NCBI GenBank assembly: GCA_963969595.1
Contig: OZ018416.1
Location: forward strand, 2,310,065 to 2,374,064
DNA length: 64,000 bases
Direction: 5' to 3'
DNA from: Neckera pumila
Lineage: Eukaryota; Streptophyta; Bryopsida; Hypnales; Neckeraceae
Shown: in pieces, positions 10,872 to 51,574 of the stretch
How positions within the stretch are numbered: position 1 is the first letter of the stretch
How the letters are laid out: each line of letters begins with the position of its first letter
Position numbers and translations under genes: made by a program
The notes under the pieces: model-generated
What the model was told of the DNA's origin: nothing
Databases searched by the model: none
Seen by the model: only the letters and a program-made list of their open reading frames with translations

Positions 10872-13091
10872 TCAAAAACCTTTGTCATATTCATAGATAA
10901 TAGATGACCAATAATCTTTACTAAATGTAGGTATTTTTCCTTCCCTTTTTTGATTGATTAGGCTAGTGCAGATATTTTTTTTATTGACAAGTGCTATTCC
11001 TAATTTATAGTTTTTATGTAGGTCTATTTTTGGAGATTTAAATTCTAAAGTTCCATGAACTAACTTTTTCAACCTCATAAAAATATCGGCTCCATTTAAT
11101 GTGCAAAATTTATACCACAATTGATGAATAGCAAAATTCCCTCCCTCAATATTTCCGTTGTTAAACCATGTTATTATTGAGGCTTCTTTGTCGCCTACAT
11201 CTACATGTGGCTTGATTTTTGAATTTTTGGAAATATGCATAGAATGCACACTTGTTAAATTATCCACTTGTCCAATAGCAATACATTTTAATTTGGAAAA
11301 TTGATTTGAAAAAAAAAGATTAATAGAATTACCAAATTTGAACGTGTACCTCCAAATATTGCTTGCTATTAAATTGCCCATAGTTCTCCAAGCATATTCT
11401 TTGGAATGTGATTGGAAGGTAAGATGAAATTGACAAACATCTCCATGCACATTAGGACCCCCATGTGATCCATATCCATGGCTAATAGATAAGTAGTTGC
11501 CTCGTTTTTCATCTTTACTACTTTTGCCTTTACAAAGACAATTTTCATAATAAATTAATAAAACTAAGTTTAATAAAATTAATGTATTGTTGTATAAAGG
11601 CTTTTCTATCATATGTGGTATATATAATAAAAGAATATACTCTACTACTAATTCCTTCTAATCTAAAATTTGATTTTTAAGAATTAAATCTCCATTTATA
11701 ACTAATAAAGATTCAATGGTAGTACATATGATGCTTTCCATTGAAAAAATATTTTTCCAAGTATCACTATACTTAGGATGAATCCAAAAAGGATATTCTT
11801 TTTCATCATCTTTTTCTTCATCATTTACTTTTTGCTTGCCTTTGTTTTTTGAACTTAACCCCTAAAGGACCAACATGCGTTTTTTGGCCGTATAGAAATT
11901 TTGGGCAGGTACGTGTATCTAGAGATATCTATATTTGAGGCTGAAATTTTTATTGAAGGTAGGAACGAGGAATATCTTCATGTGTACCAAGTTTCACGAC
12001 ATTTCGAAATACGAGTCAAAAGTTGTGACCTGATATGTTACTTTTTTTTGTAACCGGGCAGTTTGGGCAGATTAGAAAAAATCATTTTTTCCGGATTTTT
12101 TTTTGAAATTGGTTCTCTACATTTATATGTACTTAAAAAGCTTTGAGTCACTCCATTTCAATCAATGAGTCAAAAGTTATGAGGGTTTTTGGTTTGCGGG
12201 CAGTTATGGGTTCTCTACTCTAAAAAAAACTTTAAAGTCGTTTATTTAACTCAATTTTCAATAATTTTGGAAAAAAATAAAATCTTAGGATGTAGATTGA
12301 TTATTACAACATTACAACCGTTGGGATTGGCATTTTTAAATTCCATGATTAAATTTTTAACAATTTAGTACTTTGAGTCATTTTCTACTTCTTTCTACTT
12401 GCTATTTTTTTCCTATATGTTGTACAATTCCAAATGATGTGAAATTTTTCATGCATATAGACAACTTGCTTGGGAAACCCAATTTAAAGAAGAACCACCT
12501 TTATCGGCATTTTTTCATTGAAAAGTGAGCTTGCAAAGTGCAGCTGCCCGTTTTTTCGCAGGATTGAAAAAATGGTTTTCAAGACTTTGAATGCTTATAT
12601 CTTATGATCCACAGGGTGGGATTTTCTGAAATTTTTACCACATGTTTTCAAAATATCATACTACAAGATCCTACGGTTACATATGTCAAAAATTGTTTTT
12701 TTCCAAAAATTTGGTAGTTGTATTAGAAATGGCAATTTTAGAGCGTTTTTGGTGATTACATAGTCGTGAAACTTTAGGGGTTAATGAAGTCTTTTAAGCA
12801 AATATCACAAATTTTGTGACAATGATTTCTATATAAATATTGTTTTTCACTTGGATTTTGTGCATTTTTAGGTTTTGATTTAAAAAATTTATCAAAGTAA
12901 TTTCCTTCTTTTATTATATTAGCACATGGGCAAACGTATAATTTTAAAAAAGAATCTTTACAATTGTGATTTCCGTAAGAACAACCTTTAGCTTTTTTAC
13001 CTCCATAATCAAGTTCAAGTATATTACTTTCTTCAAGATATTTTACACTTATAACATGATTTCCAAAACTTTTTGTTTTTAAATCTTCCAT
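10872..13091 (-). pseudogene. 2OG-Fe(II)-oxygenase-like gene, broken by a TTAA element
   Basis: Two minus-strand frames flank the TTAA element at 11855-12784. The upstream part (13091-12785) encodes about 100 residues with a Cys/His-rich stretch (CPC... and HCHKICDIC). The downstream part (about 11840-10872) is open apart from one TAG near 11657-11659 and carries HVD, GGNF and, about 40 residues on, LVHGT. The HxD...H pattern with a GG-F strand is what 2-oxoglutarate/Fe(II) dioxygenases show; the closest picture I have is the TET/JBP-type group found with transposons in fungi and algae, but that subgroup is an inference. A frame change is also needed around the insertion site. The gene is probably dead, or it was part of a mobile element. 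Confidence 0.5.
11855..12784 (+). mobile_element. TTAA-flanked repeat family, copy 2 (inserted in a gene)
   Basis: TTAA at 11855-11858 and 12781-12784 bracket 922 bases whose ends are inverted: CCCCTAAAGGACC at the left and CTTTAGGGG at the right. The insertion splits the oxygenase-like reading frames, which gives an independent confirmation of the boundaries. No transposase is encoded. TTAA duplication with CCC ends is the hallmark of piggyBac-type transposition, so a piggyBac-like origin is possible. Confidence 0.88.
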
Positions 13092-16329: not shown

Positions 16330-16640
16330 TAAAGAATAAAAAACATAAATTTAAATCTCCTTGTGGAATACTAATGAGGCCTATTTTCAAATTATAAGTT
16401 TAAATGTCTTCTTCGTGAATTGGTGAGGCCTCCCAAAACAATCTAAGTGTAAATCTCATTCCGGTCCCAAAATGGAAGAGACAACTTGCCATAAAGGAAA
16501 TAGAGATTTATTCCACCCAAACTTGGTATTGTTTTTATAAACTCAAAATTGTTATGCTTCATTGGAAGTACACAAGCCAAATAAATTTGGAGTGGAAGAC
16601 TAAAAATGCTCACAACAAATATAGATAATGAAACCTTTCT
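16330..16640. other. Spacer without recognised features
   Basis: No gene or repeat end is seen here. Confidence 0.4.
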
Positions 16641-17524
16641 TTAACCCCTGAAGGACCGACATGCATTTTTTTGTCTATATAGAAATTTTGGGCAGGTATG
16701 TGTGACTAGAGATTTCCATTATTTTGGCCCAAATTTTAATAGAAGGTGGGGACAAGGAATATGTTTCATATTCACCAAATTTCATGACATTTGGAAATAC
16801 TTTACAAAAGTTATAGCCTAATATGTTACTTTTTTTTGGAACTGAGCAGTCTGGGTAGATTGAAAAATATCACTTTTTCATGAAACAAAAATTTGAAATT
16901 GGTTTTCAAGAGTTATATATATATGGAAAGCTTTGAATCATTCCATTTTGATCAATGAGTCAAAAGTTATGAGGATTTTTTGCTTGCGGGCAATTATGGA
17001 TTCTCTACTCTAAAATAAACTTTGAAGTCCTTTATCTTACTCAATTTTCAATATCTTTTGAAAAAAATAAAACCATAGGATGTATACTGTTTATTAATAT
17101 TTCAACCATTATGATTGGCATTTTTCACTTCTTTAACTAAATTAATAACAATTTAGTATTTTGTAGTCAAATCTAAGAATAAGATTAAAGGACTTCAAAC
17201 TACAATTTAATTTGTTTTTAATCTAAATGTGAAATTTTTCAAGCATGCAGGCAACTTGCCTTGAGTAATTATTCCAAAGAGTTACCATTATTTTGGACAT
17301 TTTTTCATACACAAGTGAGCTTGTGAAGTGCAGATGCCTGGTTTTTTTTGTAGGGACAAAAAAAGTTTTTTTGTCAATTCAAATGCTAATATCTTGCAAT
17401 CCACATGGTGGAAATTCTGAAATTTTTTCTACATCTTTTCAAACCAGTGTAATACAAGATCCTACGATTACATGTGTCAATAAAAAATTTAAGTTTTTTT
17501 GGTACTTGTTCTAAAATGCCAGTT
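16641..17524 (+). mobile_element. TTAA-flanked repeat family, copy 4, cut off at its right end
   Basis: The copy starts TTAACCCCTGAAGGACC at 16641 and follows the family to a CCAGTTTTT motif. The last 50 or so bases, including the CTTTAGGGGTTAA end, are absent: the sequence changes at about 17525 into the left arm of the inverted duplication. The duplication breakpoint therefore lies inside this element. Confidence 0.8.
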
Positions 17525-17586: not shown

Positions 17587-19141
17587 GTTGTTAATTGTAT
17601 CCAGAGCCATCCATTTGATTGTGCTGTCGCCACAAGTGGTATTGATATGGTAGAAGGCTCAGAAACCGCTCGTCTAAGGGCTGGTCTGGCTTTCTCATGT
17701 ACTTATTGGATGACAATATTTTTAGCTCATTTTTCAGACATAGAGAATTAGAAGAGGAATCTAACACAAGTGGTTTCATATTTTTTGAAGCATTATTGAA
17801 TTAGTTATGAATTTTCAAACAAGATGTGCCGTAGGTGCCTATTTATGTGCCATAGGTCTTCCATAAACCGCTCACTTGCAATTCTAAAAAAAGATGGGGA
17901 AAGCAAAGATAATGATTGACTCTTGCAATTAATAATGCTTGTTTCCTTGATTCATTCAATGACTATAGAGGTCAATTTTAGAACCACCTCATGTAGTCAT
18001 GTCCATTTCACAGCCATTATAGGGACGGTTCTTAATGCCTGTGCGATTTCAGAGCCTTCTACCATAATACCATTAAGGTAACATGCATTGAATTTTTGCT
18101 GATCAGTCCAATGCTCTTTGAATGCTCAGACTCTTTTTAACTGGTTCTTTGGGTTGATTAAAATCATAGTAATTTTTAGCATAACTCGTTTTGTATTCCC
18201 ATTTTGTCAGTTTTGGACGCCGTGTGCAAGAGTTCCATCAATGGTGGCTGGCGGAGAATCTGGTCCTGACACTGCAGATTCTTTGCAAGTCATGGCTGAC
18301 AATCAGAATCAGATGAGAAGGCATCGAGAAATTGGATTGTAAGTACCTCCTTATGAACTGGATCTTTCGTGCGCTACTGCGCTTCCTATGTCAATCCCCA
18401 AAACAGTGGATGGTAAGGTGGACGTTATTATTTGCATTACTTGACGCATGTCAACATATGTAGGAGTTTGATTCTTAAGAGATCACTATTGGGATCTTTG
18501 GATACAAGAGCCAAATTTGTTGAGATCAAATTTTTATAACCGTGTATGAATTTCTTACACAATTATGAAGTGGGAGGTTGTAGAATGTTGACCACTATAT
18601 GTGACAGTAGGCAACGTATAGACTCAATTTAAAGGTCTGCCGCCATAGATATGTGACCAATTCATGCTTCAGTACTTACTAATAAGGTGGTCCACTGACC
18701 CAAAACCGCCATCATCGCTCTGTACATCTCCAAAATCAGTATGTACGTATGTGGAAGATACCTCTACCAAAATAAAGTTTGACGCTTCCTAACTTTTGCA
18801 TACGGTATCTAAATGTCGCATTCTTTGGTGCATTGGAACCTCTTTGCACTTGCCAGCAAGAAAATATAAAAGATTTGGTCAGTCTAATAATAGTAATTAG
18901 GCACAGTAGCGGTTTTGGGGGTGCCCACCTTAGATCCAACCAAGTGTGAGAATGGACGAGTTTCTGTTGGCAACTGAGTTCAGTACCGGTGGTACGATTT
19001 AGGTCCCTAACGGGTTTTGCCTCATACAACGTACTGATAATTAAAGTGGATCGTTGCAGACCAATGGAGATTCTTCAACGGTTTAGAGTGCAGGAAGGAG
19101 CAGAAGGTGTTGGTCATCCTTTCCAGTGCACGCAGAGTTGA
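17587..19141 (+). pseudogene. Truncated ASG2 3' fragment (exons 18-20)
   Basis: Copies of the last three ASG2 exons lie at 17587-18075 (exon 18, split by the MITE at 17648-18064), 18211-18338 (exon 19) and 19060-19141 (exon 20, ending in the CTQS box and TGA). The 17 upstream exons are missing because the duplication ends within the intron upstream of exon 18. It cannot encode a WD40-TPR protein. It may still serve as 3' sequence or give antisense transcripts. Confidence 0.92.
17648..18064. mobile_element. 417-bp MITE with TA duplication, inserted in the ASG2 fragment
   Basis: The right arm lacks this segment, so its borders are exact: TGGTAGAAGGCTC at the left and its complement at the right, flanked by TA at 17646-17647 and 18065-18066. 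The pre-insertion site in the right arm has a single TA. TA duplication indicates a Tc1/mariner-type element. The insertion postdates the duplication, or was lost from the right arm. Confidence 0.92.
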
Positions 19142-19956
19142 GAGCAACCATGACAGAAAGCTCTAGCTTAATGTCCTCACCTGACCCCCTTAATGTCCTG
19201 GTCGGTGGTGATTTTGGTAGGCTAGTGTGTTCTAGCTTAATTGGAGCATTTCTGACACAATGAGTCACAAGTGTATATACGAGTCACTCTGCATTGTTTG
19301 TGATACCCTACAATACATCTAGGATTTGTACAAATGGTTCTAGAAGTTGTACATTCGGTTATCTTCCATTAATAGTGATTTTTTAAATAATTCCATCTTC
19401 ATATTGCAAATCTGTTGCAATATGTGTGAAGAACAGGAGGGTGATTGGTGGTTTTGTAAAAGTGCAACTTGTATGCAGGTGTACCCAAAGTCAGATGCTA
19501 CTCCTGCTTGATGTTTGATTCGATTATTCCATTACTTGCTGCAGTTAGGATTCACTTCTGAATGTTGAAAGTCAGGAATCGTGAAAAGTTTGGCATTAAT
19601 GCAGTGAGTACTTCCAGTTTGGAAAATGTTTGAACTTTCAATGTTTCAGGTTATTCAGACAATGAGATTGAAAAGTTCGGGACCTGTCACATTCCAATTC
19701 CAAGGCCTTTTCGCCCCAGTCTTTTCCTAAAGTACTCTACTGGTCAGAATCGGGCTCGCAAGCCTTGCAAAGAGTGTGACAATTTATTCATGACTCAAAA
19801 GAAATCTCATCTGCTCCTAAATACTTCTGCTAAGGTATGCAGACACGCGAGGCCAAAGAAGAAAGACGAGTGAAAGAGAAGTGGGCTAGAGGAGCGGAAA
19901 GCGTTTAGGATTAGGGTGAACAAAAGACGAGATCATAAAAGAAAATGGAACTCTGC

Positions 19957-21667
19957 TTACGGAGGATTACTTCCAAGAATTTCCAATCGGTGTAAGTCAT
20001 AACCATTTTGAATGAGAGTCACCTCTAGATCATCCTCAGAATAAGGGATCACGATAGGCGGATTCCCCACAAACAGGCCAGAAATCTGTTCTCGCTCGTT
20101 GTTGAAGGGGCCGTCATCCTCACCCCTGTGGGTGGGCCGACTTTTGCCTGCGTCGAACTCGTAGTCAACACAATCACCTGCAGCGTTGAAGTGAAAGCAT
20201 AGTGCCCGGAAAGCAAACATAAACTTGTCCGGGTACTTCGGCCTGGAAGATATTTTAAGGTTAAGGACCGATTTGTTCGGACCGACCTCACGGGATGTCG
20301 TGAAGCCCACCGGTCCAGGAGCGCTAGGCACAATATTGCAGGTCACTTTTCCACCAGTGGACGCAGAGTCATCAGCTGTAATCTCCAGCTTTGAGGCGTA
20401 TATAATCTGATGAATCACCCACAACTTGCGCCGATCATGTCGATCACTCCAGAATCTACAAAATTACAGGTTTCGTTACCCTCTCAAGAGCTGGGCATGT
20501 TGGCCAAGAACACGTCACAAACATGCATACAGCTAGGCAGCGCCGCAAGAACTATACTTTGACAAACAAGTTATCAAATTCCCCTATTGATCTTATGATT
20601 TAGGATCTTATGATTCCACTCTTGATCTTATGATACTTTGATGCTGACTGCACTTGATGGAAGACAATGTCGTAGACAGTAGCACTCGGGCTCCTATCTG
20701 AAGGAGACCACCAAATAGTCACAATTTCGTTCTAGGGGACGATAATTTGCACTACTATGGAGGATACCCAATCTGGAAATGATGTCAAATACCAGAATGA
20801 TTACAGCTGGCCCTCACGTCCTTTTCAAAGCAATAAATTAAAACTTGTTGTATAGACTTGTTACTAGTTTCTACAAATCTTCGAGAGTGAATGGAGAACG
20901 ATCCTGACCAATGTTACCTTTCGAACATCGGCAAACAACAACAAGGTTGGTCAGGCCACTTTAGCATCGGATCGTCGATGTTAGGCTTCCACTGTTTTAG
21001 CCTTCCTACTCCCTTGCCCGTGACGATCTCAATGAGCTGTTTCTTGTCGGCCACCATAGTCGCCAACCCCTCTGAATTGACGTGCACATTTCGGGATTCT
21101 GAAAAATGAGCCTCTGCCTCCCCCAAGGGTCCACCGAGGAGTGAACCCTTCAAGGAGTGTATAGAAGGGAATGTTGCATCAATTTCACGGTCTAAGTATG
21201 ACCATGTGATCAGGTCGCCTTCTGCATTTCCACCGGACACAACGTTAATTAAAACAATTTACAGCTCACACTCATAGAACATAGATTCTTCTCAGAGCTG
21301 ATAGCTTAACCTTGAACATAATTAGCCTCGTAATATCAATTTGAGCTATCCGGCAGCCTCATACTGTGCGTACTGCAAAGAACATCATAATATGATGCTT
21401 GAGAAGGGTCTCAAGTCTCAACGTACCTGAGGATCCGTTCTCTTGCAAGGAACGAAGTCCCGCTCTCAGCATCTCTTGGGACTCTGAGCTTGAAGTGGTT
21501 CCCAGATTGAGCATAGACCCAGCTTTCCTCAATACAAGAGATCCCCCCGCGCTCTCCTCCTTGCACAGGACATCCAGCAAGGTAATATCTAATGCAAGTT
21601 CTCCCAACGGGTCCAAATATACAGCGCTGCTCTTCTCGTACAAGTATGTCTCGAAGGTTCCTTCCAT
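19957..21667 (-). CDS. Uncharacterised 347-residue protein, candidate gasdermin-like pore-forming protein (open copy)
   Basis: Three exons on the minus strand: 21667-21427, 21221-20918 and 20455-19957, joined in phase by GT-AG introns. The ATG at 21667 is chosen because only non-ATG codons lie upstream in frame. I do not recognise the family with certainty. Visible features are a beta-like SLVLRKAG (43-50), a Gly/small-residue stretch GSLLGGPLG (106-114), a basic segment before LWVIHQIIYASKLEI (193-207) and MFAFRALCFHF (261-271), then a polar region with DDGPFNNE and a short C-terminal tail. The order of these segments recalls gasdermin pore domains with a short C-terminal inhibitory part, as in fungal members. 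No signal peptide or full transmembrane helix is seen. It is head-to-head with the TPR-CHAT gene, 2.7 kb away. Gene structure is well supported; the gasdermin assignment is a hypothesis (perhaps 25 percent likely). Confidence 0.7.
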
Positions 21668-22851
21668 TTCTAGAGTACGATGCAGGTGTGCCCTAATTGA
21701 TTCTAGCACGTATCAAATTAAGACATAGTTGGCCTTCTGTCCTAGTGAGAGCCCCACTCAATCAGAGTTTATCTGTTCCCAGCACAAATGGATGAAGTAC
21801 CACGCGTAAGGTTGCTGTCGATGTTGAATAGGGTTGTCAATTAGAGATCGTCTTGGAGGTTTCGTTTATGAAGTTGACAGACTTCAAGGACAGGTTGCTT
21901 TAATTAGACCAACAGTCGTCGAACGGCGAGCTGTGTTCGATTGTTGCTTGGCACGAAGGGAGTCGTCCAGATGAGGTACATCTATTTAGCGACGTCAGTG
22001 CGACTGTGTGCGATGGAAATGTCTTGAAGGTGAATAGTTCTGTAAATAGAACTTCAAACTAACCCTAAATGTAGATAGTGCAACAAGTTGGGCAAGGAAG
22101 CAGCTACGCCGCGAACAACTTAGATGACCTGAATTGAAAGGATCAAGGGCCTGAATAGAAGAAGGAAACCTAGAAAGCAAACAAATTGGATCATGTAAAA
22201 ACTAAAACCCACTAGTTCAATAGAAGAACTGGCCAACAGCCTAGTTACTCAAAGCAAATCCGGCAGCCCTTATGTACCAAGAGTAGCAAACCGTATCAGA
22301 AAGACCAGCAACTTCACGACAAATGCAACGTTTTACTGAAGAACCAACTTCGACCAGCAAAGTGAAAAGTGAGAACGAGACATCACCAGCACCAAATCCA
22401 CATCAACAACACTGAGAAGATGTACGATAAGAACGAGAAGGACGGACTAGCTCAACCAAAGACGTACGAAGGTAACCATTACATCCAATAGGGCTTGTAC
22501 ATGAGACTTCTATCAAGATGAACCAAAACATGGCCAGCACCTACACGGACAAGAAGACAAGCGCCAAAAATGACAAGAGAACCAAGGCTGAAAGTAGTAA
22601 GCGGCAACCTTAGGAGAAGTGCCGGAGATGACAATTGCGGATTGCAGCGACACCACAGCCAGACCACAAAATGACGATCGAGGGCGGACTTGATGAAGGG
22701 GGAGCGGCCAAGAGGAGAGGAGTTGCAAATCATCACGAAAATCTCCAGCAAATGAGTATTACAATTAGTATCGCACGCAATCTAAAGCACCACGATCCGG
22801 TGAACAACGCGAATGGGGAGGCGGGCAGAAGAGGACCGTCACCTGGCCACA

Positions 22852-24347
22852 ATCACTCACCGTACAAGACAAATTTCTTGTGAGGAGTACAATGGCGATT
22901 GACCAACTCACGAGGGTTCCAAACATTTCTAAATGTTGTAAATTTTGCAATTTCTTGCTTAAAAAACACCACCAAAAATCATGAATATGTCCCTTGTTTA
23001 CTGACAGTGTTGAATACCTTACTGTGTCGGAGAGTAAACCGACCTTATGATTACTGTAGTAAGACCTGATTACTTTAGTGTTTGAAAAACAATAATAAAA
23101 TGTTATCATTGTTTAGGGTTAAAATTGTGTATCCAGACATTGTCACTCCAATGATATACATAACATAATCAGTTGCCCTAGTGTCTGTACAGTACAAACA
23201 GCCTTGTGCAGACCGTTTCCAGTTTAGGTTGCACCAACAATGCATTGCTCTGGAATAGATCAAGGTTGCAATTTCACTTCTCTGCTACAGCCTCTGATCG
23301 GAAGCCAAGGTTTCGTCAGAAGATTGATGGGGCTGGTGTGAGAGAGAGTTCTGCTTAAACGCGGGGAGACAATTCTGTAGGAAATTGATTTACAGAAGAA
23401 CAATAAAATTGTAAGACAAAACTAAGCTGGGAGCAGTCTTCGGAATGTATTCAAACTGCTGAGAATATTGCTGCGGCTAGTGTGAGAAATAGTAGTTGCC
23501 GCTTCTAGTAAAATCTTGGGGCGAGCAATTCAGTCTGCAAATCGGTCACAACATCTGCGAGTAGACTAGTTGAACAAGAACGGTAAACCTTCTCTGTGCT
23601 TAGTAACCCTTCATCAGTTGGAAATTATCGTGCGCGAAAGAAGCTTTCGTTCTAAGCGCGGAAGAGAGCGACCTTGCTGTAGAGACATCCAGGTATATTT
23701 CTTGCCTCTTTTTATGATTGCCTTGCAGATCATAGTCTTAATTATACACCATAACAGTGGAGCTTGAAAAACCAGCTAGGATGTAGATTCTTGCATTTAG
23801 GTTTTACAAATTGATTTCAGGTCTTCATCTTGGTTTGCACAACACATCAGGTAGTAGAAGGTGCAACCAAAGTCGAATCAAGATGTTCCAGTTATTGCCT
23901 TATTGGGAAGTTATGATTTGCTTTGCAATGCTTGTTCACATCGAATTGTACATTAGCATTAACGAAGTACTTTTAAAGAATCGATCCCAGAATATTGCGA
24001 TTAATGATTCTTAAACCTAAAGTATCACAAGTGACCTCTCAGGTCACTATTTCAGTGTACGGGTATTTTGAGGACCCTGTGACGGTTATGACATTTACTG
24101 TGATGTTTTAGGGTTGATTCGTTGTGCAATTGTGAGAGAAGCTGGATGCGGCAGAATTGATTTTGTTCCCCGACATGCAAGTGTTTAAGGTACTACATGT
24201 CATTTTCAATTTGAAGGTCCTGCAAGCTTCTTTAATCTACTTGGAGTCTTGGATTGACGTTGTTTCAGCTGTATTAAGTGTTATGAAGCTCATGGAATTC
24301 AATCAGTATTTGAAAATCGTGCAGCAGGAATAACGACATCGAAGGCA
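22852..24347. other. Divergent promoter/leader region between the uncharacterised gene and the TPR-CHAT gene
   Basis: No protein-coding exon is recognised. The stretch has more mixed base composition than the transposon-rich flanks and several possible splice-like sites (for example TTGATTTCAG ending near 23820), so it may hold 5' untranslated exons of the TPR-CHAT gene. Two degenerate direct repeats around GCTGGTGTGAGAGA and GCTAGTGTGAGAAA occur at about 23330 and 23475. Confidence 0.4.
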
Positions 24348-27300
24348 ATGGATCCACTCCAACCTTATTGTGTATTGCATCCTTATCAATCGACAAGCAT
24401 AACTGGAGCTGGATGTTCCACTCCGGCATTATACATGTCATGGAGAGCATTGGTGCCTTCAGAGGTTGGTTTGGAGTATCACCTACGAAAACTACCGGAA
24501 CAATTCCTGCCGGAACGATTTGTTGCGGATTTACTGTCGAAGAACATCGAAGGAAGAAGTGCTCAAGAGCTAGGTGATTTGAAGTCAGCTATGAAAAAAT
24601 TTGGAATTTGTAAGTCTCTAATATCAGAAGATCTGAGAAAAATAGTACCAGAGCATGTTCAAAAGCAGGATTATGATTTTCTGCTGGCATGGGCAAACCT
24701 TCCTTTGGCACAGTTGTGCCAATCACTAGGCACCGGTGATCCAGTCATGTTCAAAGAAGCGATGGATATGTGGAAGGAGGTCCTTGACTGCATCTTGTCA
24801 TTAGAAAGGTCGGATGATTCCCTTGAGCTAGTTTGTAAGAGTAATTATTACACGGCTCAGTACGAGTGGGGGTGCGCAACGAGTTCTCCCGAGGCCAGAA
24901 CTGAAGCAGTGCAGGAATATGCAAAGTTATTGAGTTGCAATGAAGAGCAAGCAGTTTCCCAGTTATGTTTCCTACTGGGTATTGACCACCAATACTTGGG
25001 GAACTTTGAAGTTGGGTTGCAATGGATACAGAAAGCAGATCGGCTGGGTCCGAGAAATACACCAGGTGTGGACGTTTATAGATATGTTATTTATATTACC
25101 GAAGCTGAATTGTTTCTGCGGCTTGAAAAATTTCCTGAAGCAGTAGAATTTCTACAGAATTTGATCTGCAAGTATCCAGAAAGCATATACATGAGAAGGC
25201 GCCTAGAAGAATGTTACTCGTTGATGAGGGCAAGGGCGGAAGTCAACGGCCTTCCTGAAGAAGCGAAGACATACGAAAAATTGGCCAAAGATCAACATGA
25301 CCTCCACTGTAGGCGCTGTGGTTCTGGATATTTTGAAGTGGTGCATATTCCTGAAGCCGTTGACAATTCTAATCTCACTTCGATTCAAGGGCCATTTGCT
25401 TCGGTTCAAGGGCCATTTGAACTGAAAGACATCCTCATCGCGAGTGAGGATGCATATTTTGAGAGTCCTCGTTCTCATCCGATGATGGCGCCTCCGCACT
25501 GTCCTGTCGGCAGCTGGGTACGATGATTCCAAACAAGATATAATGCATATTGCTGTAGAATTTGTTGCAATCTATCATCATAGGTTGATGTGGATCTGCT
25601 TGAGATTCATCTTGCTGTTACAATGTGCTCGGGACTGGACAGGTAGACAATCAAAGCTCCGTCCTGACAAAAATCTTGCGTTTGCTGATTGAAATCTGCG
25701 CAGCTAGGCCTGGTTCAAGCAGACGATGGTTCCCTGTTCCATGAATTGGAGAAATGGCCAATTGCAATTTTTGATATCTTTAAATCATACGTCCAACTTG
25801 CAGAAGCTGCACAGAGACGCTGTGACTGGGAGGGAGCGATTCTCAACTATGAGCGGATTAGGGAATTACTGAAAATCACTACAAGAGTTGTTGCAAGAGA
25901 GACCTATGACTGGCTTTTGTCGTGGTGCGACCTGTCATTGGCAAATTGGTATCATTACCATACAAGGAAGTTTGAAAAAGCGCTCGAGATTTGGAAGGAG
26001 ATGACACGTAGTGCCAATCGTATTCTGAATCAGAATAAATTCTTAACAATGGGATATGGGTTATGGCAGTGTTGTTTGAGCTTCAAGTTAGCAAGGACCT
26101 TAACGAAACAGATTTATACATAGGTACAGCAGATATAACCAGCGAGCGCCTTGCATGTTTCTGGCTGTATTATGGTTACTTTAGATCTGGGAATTATGCG
26201 GTTGCTTTGAAATGGCTTGGTGAAGCTGCGAAGAGGCACAAGGCAGAAGGCATTCGACGAGATGTTGAGAGCAAATGTTCAGTTGACGGGGATTACTTCT
26301 GTTGTGAGTATGATTATCTCCGCAGCGAAGCTGATCTGTTGATGAGACTCCGAAGATTTTATGAGGCCAAACATGTCCTGGAGAATTTGCTGAAAACCAG
26401 GCAGTGCATTCATGTGCAAGGGACACAAATGTTTACAAGAGAAGCAAATGCATGGTTGCAGCGTTGCAACTCTGTGGTTGACAAAGAAGAGTTGGATATA
26501 CAGAGGGCCCTCAAATTGAGTCTCATCGTTGATGACCATGAACCTGAGTAAGTTTGAATTAATCACCTACTTTGGAAAACGTATAAATTGTTGTATGCTA
26601 ATTGGCAAATTCGCTATACTCGATTCACATTTTGCTATTTTCCTGTGTCATGTATTTTCTAAAGCGGAATAGCCTGCATACTTTTGTTCACAGCGACGGA
26701 ATTGCGGAACAGTCAACATCTCCAACTGGTTGTGATATCGTGGAACTTGACTCAAATGATCAGGTACAGGACAGTTCAATTTTTTATCTGGTCCATCTGA
26801 ATACCTCGCCAGAATTTATACTAGTAGTAATTCTAGACAGAAATATCTTTTGAGTTGGAGTCATCAAATTTGATATTTAAATTATAATCTTTGTTGAGGT
26901 TCCCTAGGCTGAGGTCAGTTTTGCCCATAATTGATTTAAAAATGAATTGTTGAATATGAAACGTGCCACATGTGTAGAATTCTATTTCGTTGCTTAGCCT
27001 GCTATGGTTTCATTTATCTAGATCTACGTGGAAAGTCCTCAAGGTTCACAACTGGCTGCCTAAAGTGACCACAAATATGTACCATAAACATTAAACATTT
27101 AAACCTGTAAGGGAATTCACATGTTAATTCTGAGCTATCTCAGGTTGAAACTTATGTAACGTGGTTTGTATGGGACGTTTTTATGTAGAACTTCATTAAG
27201 TTGGTTCAATCTCAAGCGGGTTTAGAGCACCATTTGCGTCAGTTGCCTGTACCTCTTCATCTGGCGTTTCGTAAGCATGGAGACAGGGGACGATCATATC

Positions 27301-30300
27301 TGGAAATTGCCAATTGGAGAGCTGCTATTTTTGAATTTGAGTGGTGTATAAATATACTGAAGAGTACAGAAGAGCCGAGTTATGCAATCGAGGCTAAGAC
27401 TCGTGATTGGCTAATGGTATGGGCTATTCTACCTCTGGTCGGCATATACGAATTCAGGACAAAAGAATTTAAAAAAGCAGTGGATTTACTGGTTGAGATG
27501 GTCAGAATAATTATGCAAGTTCCGGATTCAGGTGAGCTCGAGCGTCTGAAAGGTACTTCACTGGAACTGTTATATACTGCAAGATATCACTACTCTGACT
27601 CAAACTATCCTGATTTGAAGGATGCGATTGTCAAAGAATTTGGTGCAGTATCAAAGCAGGGTACGGGGGACAGCGAGAACCAGTTATTAAACCGACTTTA
27701 CAGGACAAATGCGGAGAATGGGAATCAAACTGCTGCATTGCTCTTTATTCGGGAAGCAAAGCGGCTATTTATCCAACACTTCTCAGGAGATGAGCTTGTT
27801 TTGCCAAAACTATTATTCTTCTATGTTGACAAAGAATCTACTTGTTTGTTTGAGCTCCAAAGGCCGAAAGATGCGATAAAAGTCCTACTCGAGTACCGTG
27901 ATAGTATTGGCAAGAGTGACGAGGAACTCCCAGTGACGGTACAACGCAAAATGCTTGAACTTTTCAATACTGCGAGGGCTCGGGGCATAGGAGTGCAAGA
28001 GTTGCATAGACAGGCAAAAATAAACCTAGAGACCGATGAGATTGATCATAATCCAATCGAATCTGGAGTATGGCAGCTAAGACTTGACAGTTTGGAGTAC
28101 GAAAAGAATGGAGAGTAAGTAAATGTCAATGACCACAATATTTCACAATGCTCATGCAGTAGTAACTCGTCACATGGATTGGACAGCACGAGACTGACGA
28201 GAGTGCAATTTGATAGCAGCAGTTGATGAGTTGGAAAGCTATAGTTGTAAGGAAGTTTAGAATGTACACCTCTTCTGGGATTTCCTTGGGGATCAGTGGT
28301 GTGCTAGCTAGCTAGGAAAGCAAAATTCCGTTGGATTTTTTAGGTTAAAAGTTTAATAATGTTTCTGATTGTAGATTGGTTAACGCGAGATAAATGTTTT
28401 TGGTTTGCAGGTATGCGAAAGCGATAGAGTGTTATGAAAGGAAGATCAGCAGAACTCACACTGGAGGAGCATTGGAGAGTTCTTTCAGCTCTGAACTTCC
28501 ATCATACGATTATCAACGTCTTGGTTGTTTGCACCTTAAGTTGTTTATGCAAAGCATAGGATCTCGTGTTCTTTACAACCGAGAGCAGATTGTCGCTTTC
28601 TACCAGGATGTGAACTTCTTAAGTGCAACACAGTGTTTTGAGAAGTCCATCAAGCTTTCACGAACTCTTAGGGAATCTGCAGAGGCAAACTGTTCACTGG
28701 CGACAATATATGGAGTACTCGATTATCAATATCGTTTCTACCTCCAGTACCTTGAGGACCAAATTCCTACTGAGCTCAAGTCCTCCGTGAACAGCTCGGA
28801 CCCTCTTAAGCACCTGCAAGACTTCCTGCACTTCCTCTATGAGATACGAGCTTACTTAAATCTAAAGACTCCGTTGCAGAAGTACGGAGAAAAGGCAATA
28901 GCTCAGTATGGCAGCTTGTTGAATACTGATAGGGAAGGTAAAAGATACAATGAAGGCTGGATAGAGCTGTTGGAGCGTCACAAATTCCTGTATACCCTTC
29001 TTGAGAATTACCACTTCTGTAGGGCTCAATGTTTTAATTGGCTGCATAAGTTCTATGGAAGAAACGAATTTCAGAAAGAAATTGATTCCTGTCAATGGAA
29101 GGCTTTCAAGTGTGCTGAAGGAGAGCGTGCCCAAGTTATGCTGTACCAGCTGGGTGGAACAAGCAGGTCCTATTCTGTCCACTCTTTTGAAGATTTACAC
29201 GTTTTGGAAGACATGCAGGGACATTGGGCTACTCTTCAGATTAAGGGACCTACTATTTTCGTGCAATACAGTCCTACGACAGAAGATCGAAGGTCGTGTT
29301 TTTTAATATACGTCATAGATCAGGTATCCAGCTTATTATTTTTCACCCAAAAATATTATTCTTTGATTTGCCTCACTAAGGTCGTTATTAATCTAAGGAC
29401 TTTTGAATTTGTCAGGATGGCAATCTGAGTGTTACGGTTACTAAAAAGGCATGGAACTGGGAATGGGAAAAAGAAGGTGAGACGAAGTCAACAATGGAAG
29501 GCCGAAGCCTTCAGAAAAGGTTGAATGACATGTACAGTTATCTTGAAGGAAGAATAATATCCGATCCCACTAAGCCCAGATATAATGGTGATTCTCTCAA
29601 TAAGGATTTGGAGTTCTTGCATGACCTACTGATCGAGCCCATTGCTGCCAAGTTGAAGCCTGAACACAAGTTAATCCTGGCTCCATGTGAGGTGTGACAT
29701 GTTTCTTAACCTTGTGCACTAAGACTTCCCATAGGTAACAAGTACTCATGTTTGGTTCTTTGAAAAGGTGAGATGAATTGAGTACACTTACATGACCTTA
29801 TGCAACTCTGTAACACTTTTGGTACTTTATTTTTGGAGTGCAGTCGCTCAGCAAAGTGCCTTTTGCCGCACTTCGTGATAGGTCGAACGAGCAGAAGTAT
29901 CTTATTGAGCGCCACTCCATTTCCCTGACTCCCTCGTTAAGAGTATTGTACAACCGCTGTGAGCGCCTGCAAGATCTGCAAAGCTCTTACTCTTATACAG
30001 GCCATGTCGGCTCGATTGTTGCACTGGGGGATCCAGCATATGAGTGCCCCGTGCACGAGAAATTTAAACGTCTGGAAGGAACTGGAAAGGAGGCGGAACA
30101 CATCGCCAAGTTGTTTGGTGAGACAGCAGTACTCAAACTTTTGCGAAGAGATGCAACTGCACAACAACTCTTATATTGGGCTGCCAAAGCATCTCATGAT
30201 TGTTTTCGACAGGCTCTTGTGCACATTGGAGCACATGGGACGATGAAAGATGAGGAAAAAAATCACCGAGAATACACCACCGTCACCCTTCAACTGGCTT

Positions 30301-31808
30301 GTGACTCTTCTGTAACACAGGAATCCCCGGTAATTGCTATACCCGACGATTCATTCTGGAATAAGGAAGCGTATTTATGTGATCCTGGAACAGAGGGGAC
30401 CCCAGTACCCAGTACCACTAACGATTCTTCCTGGGGTAAGGAAGCATATTCCTAGACAAAAAAGTTGCTTAAACAAGTGATACAGGCTCCTGGGAACCTT
30501 GTAAGTCCAGCAAACGGTGCCTCCTTATCATCAGACACAGCGAGTACTTCGTCAAAAAGAGGGCATCTACATGGTGAAGAATTTGAAGGATTTGACACTC
30601 ACGAAGAATATGTGAGTTACTGCGATGATGATTCTGACAAGATGATTAGTATGTCTATGTCCGACTGCTTCATGGAGTCCGCGGTGCAAACTGCGCCTCA
30701 AACAAGAAGTCAAGCTGCATCAAGCTGTTCAGATGCTACAATCAGACAAAGTGTTGATTCTGCACAGAAAAATGATTCCTCACATGCTCTGAAGGTGGAT
30801 GACATAAGCAGCTGTGAGTGGAGAGCAGAGCTTGTTGTTCTAAGCGCATGTCAAACGGCTAGAGGAAGAGTAACAACTGAAGGCGTGTTGAGTATTGCTC
30901 GTGCGTTTATGATTGCTGGAGTGCCGAGTGTAGTGGCCTCACAATGGAAGGTTGACGACGAGCCAACTGCTGCTCTTATGCAAGCGTTTTACAATGAGCT
31001 GCAGAAAGGCAACGATGTTGCCTCCGCGTTGAGGTCTGCCATGCTTGACCGAATGCGAACCCGCCGTCACACAGTAAACGAGTGGGCTCCGTTTTACGTT
31101 TTCGGAGTTCCCTCATTACAGATTCCGCAAGAGTTGCAACTAGAACAAAATGCATATCCTGATCCCACCCATGCTAGTTTCCCACAACCTGATCCAGCAC
31201 AATCAGATCCCAGACAGGAATCTCCCAATGTCATGAATGGAGGGCAAGGCATGAAGTTCACATTGTTCCCCTTAGACGAAGATTTTCCTCCTCATTATCG
31301 TCTTGCCACGGTACAAGAAGTCCTAGACAACCGAAAGGCGTTGTTGAGAACAATGCCGGGCTGGCAGATTGCCAACTTGGCTGATCGTTCCGTGGATGGG
31401 GCTTATTATGGAGGTCGGACAAGGTAAATGATGACTCTTTCTTGTGTGTGTTGTGGGTTACTGCTGCATATTGGTTAATTTGGTAAATTTTGGATTCCCA
31501 ATTTTGTCTCCAAAGGAATGCTCCTCGTCCACTAACAAAGTACCTGTCTAGAATTGTGAAGTGGGGGTTCGGAAGTGATGAGTGAGGGTGATCACGCTAA
31601 TACGTATTGAGTCATATATGAACATAGTAGTTGCATTTAGAAGTGAAGCACTGTTGCTGTGGTTGAAATGCATATCCACGGCCTCTTTGTACTCTGCTGA
31701 CAATCATCTTTGTTAGCCTGACAGTTTCTTTCTTGTAGGATGCACATTCGCAACGATGTCGGTCACAAGCTAGCCACTCGAGTGGAGCAGGATATAGTGG
31801 ATATATAG
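24348..31808 (+). CDS. Large TPR-CHAT domain protein (caspase-like protease)
   Basis: Nine exons: 24348-25517, 25704-26547, 26694-26763, 27189-28114, 28411-29323, 29416-29691, 29844-30435, 30535-31423 and 31739-31808, giving about 1,900 residues. CHAT domains are cysteine peptidases of the caspase/separase clan. Here the domain is at the C-terminus: a pre-domain strand with LLIEPIAAKL and KVPFAALR, the catalytic His in HIGAHGT (codon 30234-30236) and the catalytic Cys in LSACQTARG (codon 30849-30851), followed by SVVASQWKVDD and a WAPFYVFG segment. Upstream are three homologous modules of about 300 residues with helical TPR-like repeats, two of which open with GLE(Y/H)HLR(K/Q)LP. An acidic, Ser-rich insert of about 160 residues separates His and Cys. 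Two irregularities exist: exon 2 changes frame near 26060, and TAG at 30453-30455 is in frame unless the 99-base intron 30436-30534 is spliced. No membrane segment or signal peptide is seen, so it is probably cytosolic. Confidence 0.88.
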
Positions 31809-40856: not shown

Positions 40857-41128
40857 ATTGGGTTTATTTATGTATTTTAGAGTATTTTCTCCCTCCCTAT
40901 TTTTAGATAAAAAGCTACCGGCATGTATTTTTCAGCACCCTATTTTTTTTTGTAATTGATTTGAAAGATTAATTTTCACACCCTATTTTTTTATATACTG
41001 TAGGGTTTTAAAAATATTAAAAAATACTATAGCAATGCAAAACCAACTTTGTAAGCAACAAGCATTCTATACAATTCAAATTAGCGTTGTACATCAATGG
41101 GTCAAGAATCAATATCAATTGCTTACTA

Positions 41129-46672: not shown

Positions 46673-49600
46673 TGTGGCCCTGGTGATGGTCCTCTTCTGC
46701 CCGCCTCCCCATTCGTGTTGTTCATCGGGGTCCTAGTGCTTTAGATTGCGTGCAATGCTAATTGTAATACACATTTGCTTGTAATACTCATATCGAGGTG
46801 ATCAGCAATTCCTTTCCTCTTGGCCGGTCCCCCTTCATCAGGTCGGCCCTTGATCGTCATTTTGTGGTCTGGCTGTAGTGTCGCTGCAATCCGCAATCGT
46901 CATCTCTAGCACTTCTCCTAAGGTTGCCGTTTACTACTTTCAACCTTGATTCCCTTGTCATTTTTGACGCTGGTCTTCTTAATTGTCCGTGTAAGTGCTG
47001 GCCATATTTTGGTTCATCTTGATAGAAGTCTCATGTACAAGCCCTATTGGATGTAATGGTTACCTTCGTACGTCTTTGGTTGAGCTAGTCCGTCTTTCTC
47101 GTTCTTGTCGTACATCTTCTCAGTGTTGTTGATGTGGACTTGGTGTTGGTGATGTCTTGTTCTCACTTTTTCACTTTGCTGGTCGAAGTTGGTTTCTTCG
47201 GTAAAACTTTGCATTCTTCATGAAGTTGCTGGTCTTCCTGATACGGTTTGCTACTCTTGGTCAGATACATAAGGGTTGCCGATTTGCTTTGAGTAACTAG
47301 GCCAATTATTCTATTGAACTAGTGGGTTTTAGTTTTTACATGATCCAATTTGTTTGCTTTCTAGGTTTCCTTCTTCTATTCAGGCCCTTGATCCTTTCAA
47401 TTCAGACCGTCTAAGTTGTTTATGACGTGGCTGCTTCCTTCCCCAACTTGTTGCTTCAACAAGCACTATCTACATTTAGGGTTAGGTTGAAATTGTATTT
47501 ACAGAACTATTCACCTAGACGCTGACGTCGCTAAATAGATGTACCTCATCTGGACGACTCCCTTCGTGCCAAGCAACAATCGAACACAGCTCGCCGTTCG
47601 ACGACTGTTGGTCTAATTAAAGCAACCTGTCCTTGAAGTCTGTCAACTTCATAAACGAAACCTCCAAGACGATCTCTAATTGACAACCCTATTCAACATC
47701 GACAGCAACCTTACGCGTGGTACTTCATCCATTTGTGCTGGGAACAGATAAACTCTGATTGAGTGGGGCTCTCACTAGGACAGAAGGCCAACTATGTCTT
47801 AATTTGATACGTGCTAGAATCAATTAGGGCACACCTGCATCGTACTCTAGAAATGGAAGGAACCTTCGAGACATACTTGTACGAGAAGAGCAGCGCTGTA
47901 TATTTGGACCCGTTGGGAGAACTTGCATTAGATATTACCTTGCTGGATGTCCTGTGCAAGGAGGAGAGCGCGGGGGGATCTCTTGTATTGAGGAAAGCTG
48001 GGTCTATGCTCAATCTGGGAACCACTTCAAGCTCAGAGTCCCAAGAGATGCTGAGAGCGGGACTTCGTTCCTTGCAAGAGAACGGATCCTCAGGTACGTT
48101 GAGACTTGAGACCCTTCTCAAGCATCATATTATGATGTTCTTTGCAGTACGCACAGTATGAGGCTGCCGGATAGCTCAAATTGATATTACGAGGCTAATT
48201 ATGTTCAAGGTTAAGCTATCAGCTCTGAGAAGAATCTATGTTCTATGAGTGTGAGCTGTAAATTGTTTTAATTAACGTTGAGTCCGGTGGAAATGCAGAA
48301 GGCGACCTGATCACATGGTCATACTTAGACCGTGAAATTGATGCAACATTCCCTTCTATACACTCCTTGAAGGGTTCACTCCTCGGTGGACCCTTGGGGG
48401 AGGCAGAGGCTCATTTTTCAGAATCCCGAAATGTGCACGTCAATTCAGAGGGGTTGGCGACTATGGTGGCCGGCAAGAAACAGCTCATTGAGATCGTCAC
48501 GGGCAAGGGAGTGGGAAAGCGAAAACAGTGGAAGCCTAACATCGACGATCCGACGCTAAAGTGGCCTGACCAACCCTTGCTGTTGTTTGCCGATGTTCGA
48601 AAGGTAACATCGGTCAGGATCATTCTTCATTCACTCTCGTCAAAGATTTGTAGAAACTATTAACAAGTCTATACAACAAGTTTTAATTTATAGCTTTGAA
48701 AAGGACGAGGACCGGCTGTAATCATTCTGGTATCTGACATCATTTTCAGATTGGGTATCCTCCATAGTAGTGCAAATTATCGTCCCGTAGAACGAAATTG
48801 TGACTATTTGGTGGTCTCCTTCAGATAGGAGCCCGAGTGCTACTGTCTACGACATTGTCTTCCATCAAAGCGCAGTCAGCATCTGAAGTTTTCAGATGCT
48901 CATTGATTGTCATTCTAAATCATAAGATCAATAGGGGAATTTGATAACTTGTTTGTCAAAGTATAGTTCTTGCGGCGCTGCCTAGCTGTATGCATGTTTG
49001 TGACGTGTTCTTGGCCAACATGCCCAGCTCTTGAGAGGGTAACGAAACCTGTAATTTTGTAGATTCTGGAGTGATCGACATGATCGGCGCAAGTTGTGGG
49101 TGATTCATCAGATTATATACGCCTCAAAGCTGGAGATTACAGCTGATGACTCTGCGTCCACTGGTGGAAAAGTGACCTGCAATATTGTGCCTAGCGCTCC
49201 TGGACCGGTGGGCTTCACGACATCCCGTGAGGTCGGTCCGAACAAATCGGTCCTTAACCTTAAAATATCTTCCAGGCCGAAGTACCCGGACAAGTTTATG
49301 TTTGCTTTCCGGGCACTATGCTTTCACTTCAACGCTGCAGGTGATTGTGTTGACTACGAGTTCGACGCAGGCAAAAGTCGGCCCACCCACAGGGGTGAGG
49401 ATGACGGCCCCTTCAACAACGAGCGAGAACAGATTTCTGGCCTGTTTGTGGGGAATCCGCCTATCGTGATCCCTTATTCTGAGGATGATCTAGAGGTGAC
49501 TCTCATTCAAAATGGTTATGACTTACACCGATTGGAAATTCTTGGAAGTAATCCTCCGTAAGCAGAGTTCCATTTTCTTTTATGATCTCGTCTTTTGTTC

Positions 49601-51574
49601 ACCCTAATCCTAAACGCTTTCCGCTCCTCTAGCCCACTTCTCTTTCACTCGTCTTTCTTCTTTGGCCTCGCGTGTCTGCATACCTTAGCAGAAGTATTTA
49701 GGAGCAGATGAGATTTCTTTTGAGTCATGAATAAATTGTCACACTCTTTGCAAGGCTTGCGAGCCCGATTCTGACCAGTAGAGTACTTTAGGAAAAGACT
49801 GGGGCGAAAAGGCCTTGGAATTGGAATGTGACAGGTCCCGAACTTTTCAATCTCATTGTCTGAATAACCTGAAACATTGAAAGTTCAAACATTTTCCAAA
49901 CTGGAAGTACTCACTGCATTAATGCCAAACTTTTCACGATTCCTGACTTTCAACATTCAGAAGTGAATCCTAACTGCAGCAAGTAATGGAATAATCGAAT
50001 CAAACATCAAGCAGGAGTAGCATCTGACTTTGGGTACACCTGCATACAAGTTGCACTTTTACAAAACCACCAATCACCCTCCTGTTCTTCACACATATTG
50101 CAACAGATTTGCAATATGAAGATGGAATTATTTAAAAAATCACTATTAATGGAAGATAACCGAATGTACAACTTCTAGAACCATTTGTACAAATCCTAGA
50201 TGTATTGTAGGGTATCACAAACAATGCAGAGTGACTCGTATATACACTTGTGACTCATTGTGTCAGAAATGCTCCAATTAAGCTAGAACACACTAGCCTA
50301 CCAAAATCACCACCGACCAGGACATTAAGGGGGTCAGGTGAGGACATTAAGCTAGAGCTTTCTGTCATGGTTGCTCTCAACTCTGCGTGCACTGGAAAGG
50401 ATGACCAACACCTTCTGCTCCTTCCTGCACTCTAAACCGTTGAAGAATCTCCATTGGTCTGCAACGATCCACCTTAATTATCAGTACGTTGTATGAGGCA
50501 AAACCCGTTAGGGACCTAAATCGTACCACCGGTACTGAACTCAGTTGCCAACAGAAACTCGTCCATTCTCACACTTGGTTGGATCTAAGGTGGGCACCCC
50601 CAAAACCGCTACTGTGCCTAATTACTATTATTAGACTGACCAATTCTTTTATATTTTCTTGCTGGCAAGTGCAAGGAGGTTCCAATGCACCAAAGAATGC
50701 GACATTTAGATACCGTATGCAAAAGTTAGGAAGCGTCAAACTTTATTTTGGTAGAGGTATCTTCCACATACGTACATACTGATTTTGGAGATGTACAGAG
50801 CGATGATGGCGGTTTTGGGTCAGTGGACCACCTTATTAGTAAGTACTGAAGCATGAATTGGTCACATATCTATGGCGGCAGACCTTTAAATTGAGTCTAT
50901 ACGTTGCCTACTGTCACATATAGTGGTCAACATTCTACAACCTCCCACTTCATAATTGTGTAAGAAATTCATACACGGTTATAAAAATTTGATCTCAACA
51001 AATTTGGCTCTTGTATCCAAAGATCCCAATAGTGATCTCTTAAGAATCAAACTCCTACAGATGTTGACATGCGTCAAGTAATGCAAATAATAACGTCCAC
51101 CTTACCATCCACTGTTTTGGGGATTGACATAGGAAGCGCAGTAGCGCACGAAAGATCCAGTTCATAAGGAGGTACTTACAATCCAATTTCTCGATGCCTT
51201 CTCATCTGATTCTGATTGTCAGCCATGACTTGCAAAGAATCTGCAGTGTCAGGACCAGATTCTCCGCCAGCCACCATTGATGGAACTCTTGCACACGGCG
51301 TCCAAAACTGACAAAATGGGAATACAAAACGAGTTATGCTAAAAATTACTATGATTTTAATCAACCCAAAGAACCAGTTAAAAAGAGTCTGAGCATTCAA
51401 AGAGCATTGGACTGATCAGCAAAAATTCAATGCATGTTACCTTAATGGTATTATCAATACCACTTGTGGCGACAGCACAATCAAATGGATGGCTCTGGAC
51501 ACAATTAACAACTGCAATAGCCCCAAGCAGGCACGACCGTCAGACAATACATCAGATACAAGCAGTTAAAGAAA
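46673..51574 (-). repeat. Right arm of the large inverted duplication
   Basis: This 4.9-kb arm is the reverse complement of 17525-22851. It is contiguous with the full-length ASG2 gene, so it is probably the ancestral location; the left arm is cut off inside an intron of ASG2 and joined to a transposon. The uncharacterised gene copy here is frameshifted. Confidence 0.95.
47853..49561 (+). pseudogene. Second copy of the candidate gasdermin-like gene, one-base frameshift
   Basis: Exons correspond to 47853-48093, 48299-48603 and 49063-49561. Exons 1 and 3 encode the same residues as the left copy. Exon 2 is 305 bases against 304 in the left copy: an extra C lies in the CAACCC run near 48573-48575, which shifts the frame and puts a stop (TGA) a few codons into exon 3 after normal splicing. 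The likely product would lose the C-terminal half. Whether the extra base is an insertion here or a deletion in the left copy cannot be told from two copies, but splice phase is only consistent in the left one. The gene is convergent with ASG2, 815 bases apart end to end. Confidence 0.75.

What the first reader, a model, noticed from the sequence alone, without database searches (positions are those of the whole stretch)
19957..31808. Candidate plant CHAT-protease / gasdermin-like pair, head-to-head
Seen: a 347-residue three-exon gene (minus strand) is divergent from a TPR-CHAT gene with intact His (HIGAHGT) and Cys (LSACQTARG) motifs. The small protein has a SLVLRKAG strand, a Gly-rich hairpin-like region, LWVIHQIIYASKLEI and MFAFRALCFHF in an order that recalls gasdermin pore domains, with only a short tail after it. 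Known: bacterial and fungal gasdermin genes are frequently adjacent to proteases, including CHAT-domain ones, which release the pore domain by cleavage. Inference: this may be a CHAT-activated cell-death pair in a plant, which I do not know to be described. The gasdermin identity is the weak link.
Basis: partly seen in the sequence, partly recalled or inferred. Interest (0 to 1): 0.88.

Follow-up and report, generated by a model that had tools for sequence, protein, structure and literature searches.

The report
Plant gasdermin paired with CHAT protease
A plant-like genome carries a small family of gasdermin genes, the pore proteins that kill cells in animals, fungi and bacteria, several of them sitting next to a caspase-like protease gene that may switch them on.

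Summary
The finding holds up. The minus-strand gene encodes 347 aa in three GT-AG exons. Its family is gasdermin by fold: for an AlphaFold2 model of a 49%-identical relative, Foldseek ranks 1-14 and structural-aligner rows 1-23 are gasdermins (modest model confidence). PADLOC bGSDM matches 6 of 12 members and exon pieces at 2.2e-8 to 1.3e-5; the window protein alone reaches 0.055. Animal-type Pfam gasdermin does not match. The neighbour, starting 2.7 kb away, is a CHAT gene (1e-34) with catalytic His and Cys; one frame change in it is unresolved.

The same 340 Mb genome holds 17 CHAT loci. Three of six independent further gasdermin sites lie within 12 kb of one (P 3.5e-8, post hoc). Three of three fetched CHAT genes of one cluster keep a gasdermin 3' remnant on the opposite strand. 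Two sites have no CHAT nearby.

Most likely the TPR-CHAT protease removes a conserved C-terminal tail and frees a pore domain. Cleavage, pores and death are untested; plant identity is probable, not proven. Ten paper searches listed no plant gasdermin.

The parts
21427..21667 (-). gasdermin-like gene, exon 1 (start codon at 21667-21665)
   Evidence: aligns with exon-1 region of P0001-P0003
20918..21221 (-). gasdermin-like gene, exon 2
   Evidence: 45% identity to P0001 in the genome search
19958..20455 (-). gasdermin-like gene, exon 3 with the core strands (LWVIHQIIYASKLEI ... KFMFAFRALCFHF), conserved HRGEDD linker (residues 291-296) and C-terminal tail, stop TAA
   Evidence: PADLOC bGSDM 0.026 for this exon
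24348..25517 (+). TPR-CHAT gene, exon 1 (TPR-like)
   Evidence: TPR_2 2.5e-4, below cut-off
25704..26547 (+). TPR-CHAT gene, exon 2 region; frame changes between 26039 and 26123 (unrecognised intron, or frameshift)
26694..26763 (+). TPR-CHAT gene, small exon (inferred from splice sites)
27189..28114 (+). TPR-CHAT gene, exon
   Evidence: no Pfam match
28411..29323 (+). TPR-CHAT gene, exon
29416..29691 (+). TPR-CHAT gene, exon leading into the CHAT domain
29844..30329 (+). TPR-CHAT gene, first half of CHAT domain with catalytic His (HIGAHGT, codon 30234-30236)
30486..31427 (+). TPR-CHAT gene, second half of CHAT domain with catalytic Cys (LSACQTARG, codon 30849-30851) and C-terminal extension
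18064..22851 (.). left arm of a 4.8 kb inverted duplication containing gasdermin copy 1
   Evidence: 96.5% identity with 46673-51454
46673..51454 (.). right arm of the inverted duplication containing gasdermin copy 2; it has no CHAT gene of its own (the window's CHAT gene ends about 16 kb away)
47853..49560 (+). gasdermin copy 2 (exons 47853-48093, 48299-48603, 49063-49560); a one-base difference in exon 2 shifts the frame, so with the same splicing it stops early in exon 3

Best explanation
The 347-aa protein is a microbial-type gasdermin: a pore-forming domain (about residues 1-280) plus a short conserved C-terminal tail. The divergent gene encodes a TPR-CHAT cysteine protease. The pair most likely works like the two-gene gasdermin modules of fungi and bacteria: TPR repeats sense a cue, the CHAT protease is switched on and cuts the gasdermin between core and tail, and the freed domain oligomerises into a membrane pore that kills or permeabilises the cell, probably as immune defence. 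Shown: gasdermin fold and profile match of the family, CHAT domain with its catalytic dyad, repeated gasdermin-CHAT neighbourhood in this genome. Inferred: sensing by TPRs, cleavage, the site (an Arg at the core-tail junction, Arg292 here, present in all 10 tails compared, two of them near-copies), pore formation and cell death. The host is probably a plant, possibly a moss; this is not proven.
Against: The window protein itself scores only 0.055 against bGSDM and P0003 0.023; nothing in Pfam, no gasdermin in PDB sequence searches; 3 of 8 window or paralog pieces match no PADLOC family. Both models are of relatives with low mean confidence, and the Foldseek superpositions are loose (TM-scores 0.19-0.41 over ranks 1-14, rmsd 9 to 19). 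Two gasdermin sites (C9:0.248M, a C9:21.11M fragment) have no CHAT within 0.6 Mb, and C4:30.374/30.405M lie 55 and 86 kb away. C6 is tail-to-tail, not head-to-head. C7 CHAT pieces match the CHAT at C9:8.60M (no gasdermin found there) about as well as C6, so parallel divergence of pairs is suggestive only. The CHAT at C4:20.741M has Tyr at the His position; 8 of 25 CHAT matches contain in-frame stops, introns or decay. The window CHAT gene needs an unverified intron or carries a frameshift. No expression or functional data for the window genes. P values use thresholds chosen after seeing the data, and paralogs are not independent events.
Confidence: 0.7

Rival explanations
1. True gasdermin, but the neighbouring CHAT gene is incidental: linkage reflects clustered, transposon-rich duplication of two unrelated gene families, and the gasdermin is activated in another way (another protease, or allele interaction as in fungal RCD-1).
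For: Two gasdermin sites lack a CHAT neighbour and window copy 2 lacks one of its own; apart from C4:20.741M no CHAT locus shows a gasdermin in the 1.5 kb flanks first held. RCD-1 is a precedent for protease-free activation (PMC10197012 passages).
Against: Repeated adjacency in diverged paralogs on C7, C6 and C4, and gasdermin remnants near three of three fetched C4 CHAT genes.
Confidence: 0.2
2. A decaying or repurposed gasdermin-fold family with no pore activity.
For: Copy 2 is frameshifted; C4 remnants are truncated; one CHAT has lost its catalytic His; the CHAT frame in the window is uncertain.
Against: Copy 1 is open over 347 codons; relatives P0001-P0003 keep intact 324-327 aa frames, 46-61% identities among the four, conserved core and tail.
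Confidence: 0.15
3. The small protein is not a gasdermin but an unrelated beta protein.
For: No Pfam family for the window protein, P0002 and P0003, and only a 0.21 match of P0001 to a DUF; low model confidence.
Against: All leading fold matches are gasdermins, and two profile libraries name gasdermin in relatives, PADLOC also in paralogs.
Confidence: 0.03
4. The genome is not a plant's but another eukaryote's, so the kingdom-level novelty is less.
Against: Window lies in a 339.5 Mb genome of 18 contigs with no relatives in the prokaryote collection, introns and a plant-type transposon.
Confidence: 0.12

Closest known systems
Bacterial gasdermins (bGSDM; structures 7n50, 7n51, 7n52)
   Same: Best Foldseek and profile matches; short C-terminal tail rather than a large inhibitory domain; protease gene next door
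   Different: Eukaryotic gene with introns; 9-17% identity in structural alignments of the relative P0002; roughly 80-110 residues longer than the solved chains; no Cys within the first 30 residues, where some bacterial ones are lipidated (recalled)
Fungal gasdermin-protease clusters (HET-Q1/HET-Q2 and CHAT-type Q2-like)
   Same: Two-gene neighbourhood of gasdermin and protease, CHAT in 17-19% of fungal cases (PMC10989679, PMC10197012, passages)
   Different: TPR-CHAT rather than subtilase or NLR-type partners; fold match to RCD-1 weaker than to bacterial gasdermins; host probably a plant
Animal gasdermins (GSDMA-E, Pfam PF04598)
   Different: No Pfam match at E up to 10; no large C-terminal repressor domain
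TPR-CHAT of the type III-E CRISPR effector (Craspase)
   Same: TPR plus CHAT caspase-like protease (titles and abstract starts)
   Different: No CRISPR effector; not among PDB sequence matches at E up to 1 (only another CHAT protein, 8rot, at 0.034)

Membership tests
Gasdermin (microbial type, bGSDM) | Gasdermin pore-domain fold | tested here: met
   Model of P0002 with window exons in the alignment: Foldseek ranks 1-14 and aligner rows 1-23 all gasdermins; model of a relative, not of the window protein, modest confidence
Gasdermin (microbial type, bGSDM) | Match to bacterial gasdermin profiles | tested here: met
   Met for the family, not for the window protein alone. PADLOC bGSDM: 1.4e-6 and 2.2e-8 for P0001/P0002, 0.023 for P0003, 0.055 for the window protein; paralog pieces 6.6e-7 to 1.3e-5 in 4 of 7; window exon 3 0.026. 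NCBIfam 3 of 4 members, below cut-off
Gasdermin (microbial type, bGSDM) | Short inhibitory C-terminal tail removable by protease | tested here: inconclusive
   A conserved tail follows the core; inhibition and cleavage not testable
Gasdermin (microbial type, bGSDM) | Oligomeric membrane pore | not testable with these tools
   needs biochemistry
Animal gasdermin (Pfam PF04598) | Match to PF04598 | tested here: not met
   PF04598 not reported at E up to 10; not filed as an animal-type gasdermin
CHAT protease (PF12770) | Profile match over cut-off | tested here: met
   55 and 120.8 bits against 24
CHAT protease (PF12770) | Catalytic His and Cys | tested here: met
   HIGAHGT and LSACQTARG; aligned with paralogs
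CHAT protease (PF12770) | TPR repeats and one intact frame | tested here: inconclusive
   weak TPR matches; frame change in exon 2
Gasdermin-protease two-gene cluster | Protease gene within 10 kb of the gasdermin | tested here: met
   window 2.7 kb between starts; also C4:20.74M, C6 and C7 at 2.7, 3.8 and 9.7 kb between matches
Gasdermin-protease two-gene cluster | Linkage conserved in other species | not tested
   no plant genome collection among the tools; homologs lie on contigs of at most 1,653 bases

The most novel reading that the evidence does not exclude
Plants (here probably a moss) possess an undescribed pyroptosis-like execution system: a multigene family of gasdermins, many with a partner TPR-CHAT protease encoded next to them, in which a conserved Arg at the core-tail junction is the activation cleavage site. 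Pairs expand, diverge and decay together like immune or allorecognition loci.
Probability: 0.55. Interest if true: 0.95.

Novelty: new variant of a known kind. Interest (0 to 1): 0.88.

Why it matters
Gasdermin pores are known executioners of cell death in animals, fungi and bacteria; plant immune death is explained by resistosome channels and other routes (recalled). A gasdermin family with linked caspase-like proteases in a plant would add another kind of death pore to that kingdom, bear on the old question of caspase-like activities in plants, and give a genetically tractable test of how protease-gasdermin modules spread between kingdoms. In the ten paper searches made here (open-licence PubMed Central only, some listings capped) I found no plant gasdermin described.

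Full report
Observation. The minus-strand gene reads as three exons with GT-AG introns and gives exactly 347 residues. A word-based search of 5.8 billion predicted proteins found one relative with the single sequence (P0001, 47% identity over 93%) and two more with a profile (P0002, P0003); a third search with four sequences added none among the 7,993 candidates scored. All three come from one source (lgn, read as Logan), on contigs of at most 1,653 bases with uninterrupted frames, so they are probably transcripts (inference). Identities among the four are 46-61%. The plus-strand neighbour holds a CHAT domain in two parts (1.1e-14 and 1e-34). My exon model runs 24348-31427. It removes the in-frame TAG at 30453-30455 with a 156-base intron, but needs a further intron near 26020-26132, or a frameshift sits there; this is unresolved.

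A family in the genome. The window lies in a 339.5 Mb assembly of 18 contigs. P0001 gave 13 exon matches: both window copies, C9:247.4-249.5k, a fragment at C9:21.11M, and weak ones at C7:207.9k (E 0.03), C4:20.738M (0.72), C4:30.374M and 30.405M (0.87 each). A profile of the four proteins then scored those weak places at 1.7e-5, 3.7e-12, 7.9e-12 and 7.9e-12 among the open frames of 38 fetched loci. The C7 exon as query found one more, C6:12.552M, 50% identical, 2.7e-37. PADLOC bGSDM matched the C7, C4:20.738M, C4:30.405M and C6 exons at 6.6e-7, 2.3e-6, 2.8e-6 and 1.3e-5; of 8 pieces given, 5 matched (the fifth, window exon 3, at 0.026) and 3 did not. Over all PADLOC scans, 6 of 12 members and pieces reach 1.3e-5 or better. 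Genome searches with the C4 and C6 exons did not complete, so the census is a lower bound.

Pairing with CHAT. PF12770 gave 25 matches, which I merge into 17 loci; 8 of the 25 contain in-frame stops, which may be introns or decay. Distances from gasdermin match to the nearest CHAT match: C4:20.738M 2.7 kb, C6 3.8 kb, C7 9.7 kb, C4:30.374M 55 kb, C4:30.405M 86 kb, C9:21.11M 645 kb, C9:0.248M 2.1 Mb. Counting the two C4:30.4M copies once, 3 of 6 lie within 12 kb (P 3.5e-8) and 4 of 6 within 60 kb (P 1.0e-8) under uniform placement; thresholds were set after seeing the data and paralogs share ancestry. At C7 the layout repeats the window: gasdermin on minus, CHAT on plus, 9.4 kb between the last gasdermin exon and the CHAT C-terminal match (10.3 kb in the window). 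At C4:20.738M it is also head-to-head, but the CHAT there matches only part of the first half-domain and has Tyr for His. At C6 the genes are tail-to-tail. Near three of three fetched CHAT genes of the C4:30.19-30.32M cluster (a fourth was not fetched), 4.5 to 8.4 kb upstream of the CHAT match on the opposite strand, lies a 27-37 residue remnant of the gasdermin 3' end at 87-96% identity: these look like pairs that lost their gasdermin. CHAT pieces of C7 resemble C6 (49-70%) more than the window (39-50%), as the gasdermins do (50% against 17%); but they resemble the CHAT at C9:8.60M, where the C7 query found no gasdermin, about as well (50-65%), so parallel divergence of whole pairs is suggestive, not shown.

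Mechanism. Fungal and bacterial gasdermins are freed by neighbouring proteases; about 80% of fungal gasdermin genes are clustered with protease genes, with CHAT in 17% of the partner proteases or beside 19% of the gasdermins (PMC10989679 and PMC10197012, passages read; PMC12881547, passages). Here the tail after the core, residues 283-310, is as conserved as the core (0.62 against 0.61). In nine tails aligned (two are near-copies), and by eye in the C6 tail, an Arg stands at the junction (HRGEDD in the window, Arg292), followed in most by a motif like IRDLF and by acidic residues. I propose it as the cleavage region; nothing here tests that. Sensing by the TPR part, pore formation and cell death are inferred from the families.

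Host. Support here is a Plant_tran transposon (1.3e-20), a zf-RVT element just under its cut-off (6.3e-6), introns and genome size. Searches for plant marker families did not complete.

Literature. Ten searches of the open-licence library listed no paper on a plant gasdermin. Some listings were cut: 30 of 9,417, 15 of 17, 8 of 9. I read passages only, of PMC13157962, PMC13142454 and PMC8866957 besides those above; none of the passages describes one. Most subscription papers and bioRxiv preprints are not in the library, so priority cannot be claimed.

Noticed in passing
18064-22851 and 46673-51454: Inverted 4.8 kb duplication with long 100% identical blocks broken by diverged patches (about 20605-21057 and 22000-22850), a pattern like recent gene conversion; copy 2 of the gasdermin is frameshifted in exon 2 while exons 1 and 3 are identical.
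   Followed up: partly
30486-31427, C-terminal part: The CHAT protein's C-terminal extension has a weak Aerolysin/Pertussis toxin (APT) domain match (0.014), and a similar stretch occurs three times in a row at 47-65% identity beside the CHAT gene at C10:16.18M (L019).
   Followed up: no
L036/L038 flanks and L001-L003, L007, L014: Short DNA stretches downstream of the C4 gasdermins resemble stretches upstream of the C4 CHAT catalytic exons (75-85%), as if the two genes' pieces were interleaved by rearrangement.
   Followed up: no
C9:8599290 (L010): CHAT locus of the same subclass as C7 and C6 (50-65% to C7 pieces) but with no gasdermin found by the C7 query.
   Followed up: no
1024-2097 and 3357-3884: Plant_tran transposon pieces and a LINE-like zf-RVT piece.
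   Followed up: no
11857-12784, 16635-17476, 41122-42061: About 0.9 kb dispersed repeats, 76-78% identical.
   Followed up: no
P0001, P0002: Both carry a precomputed Pfam label PF26164 that the local Pfam copy did not report; what it names was not established.
   Followed up: partly
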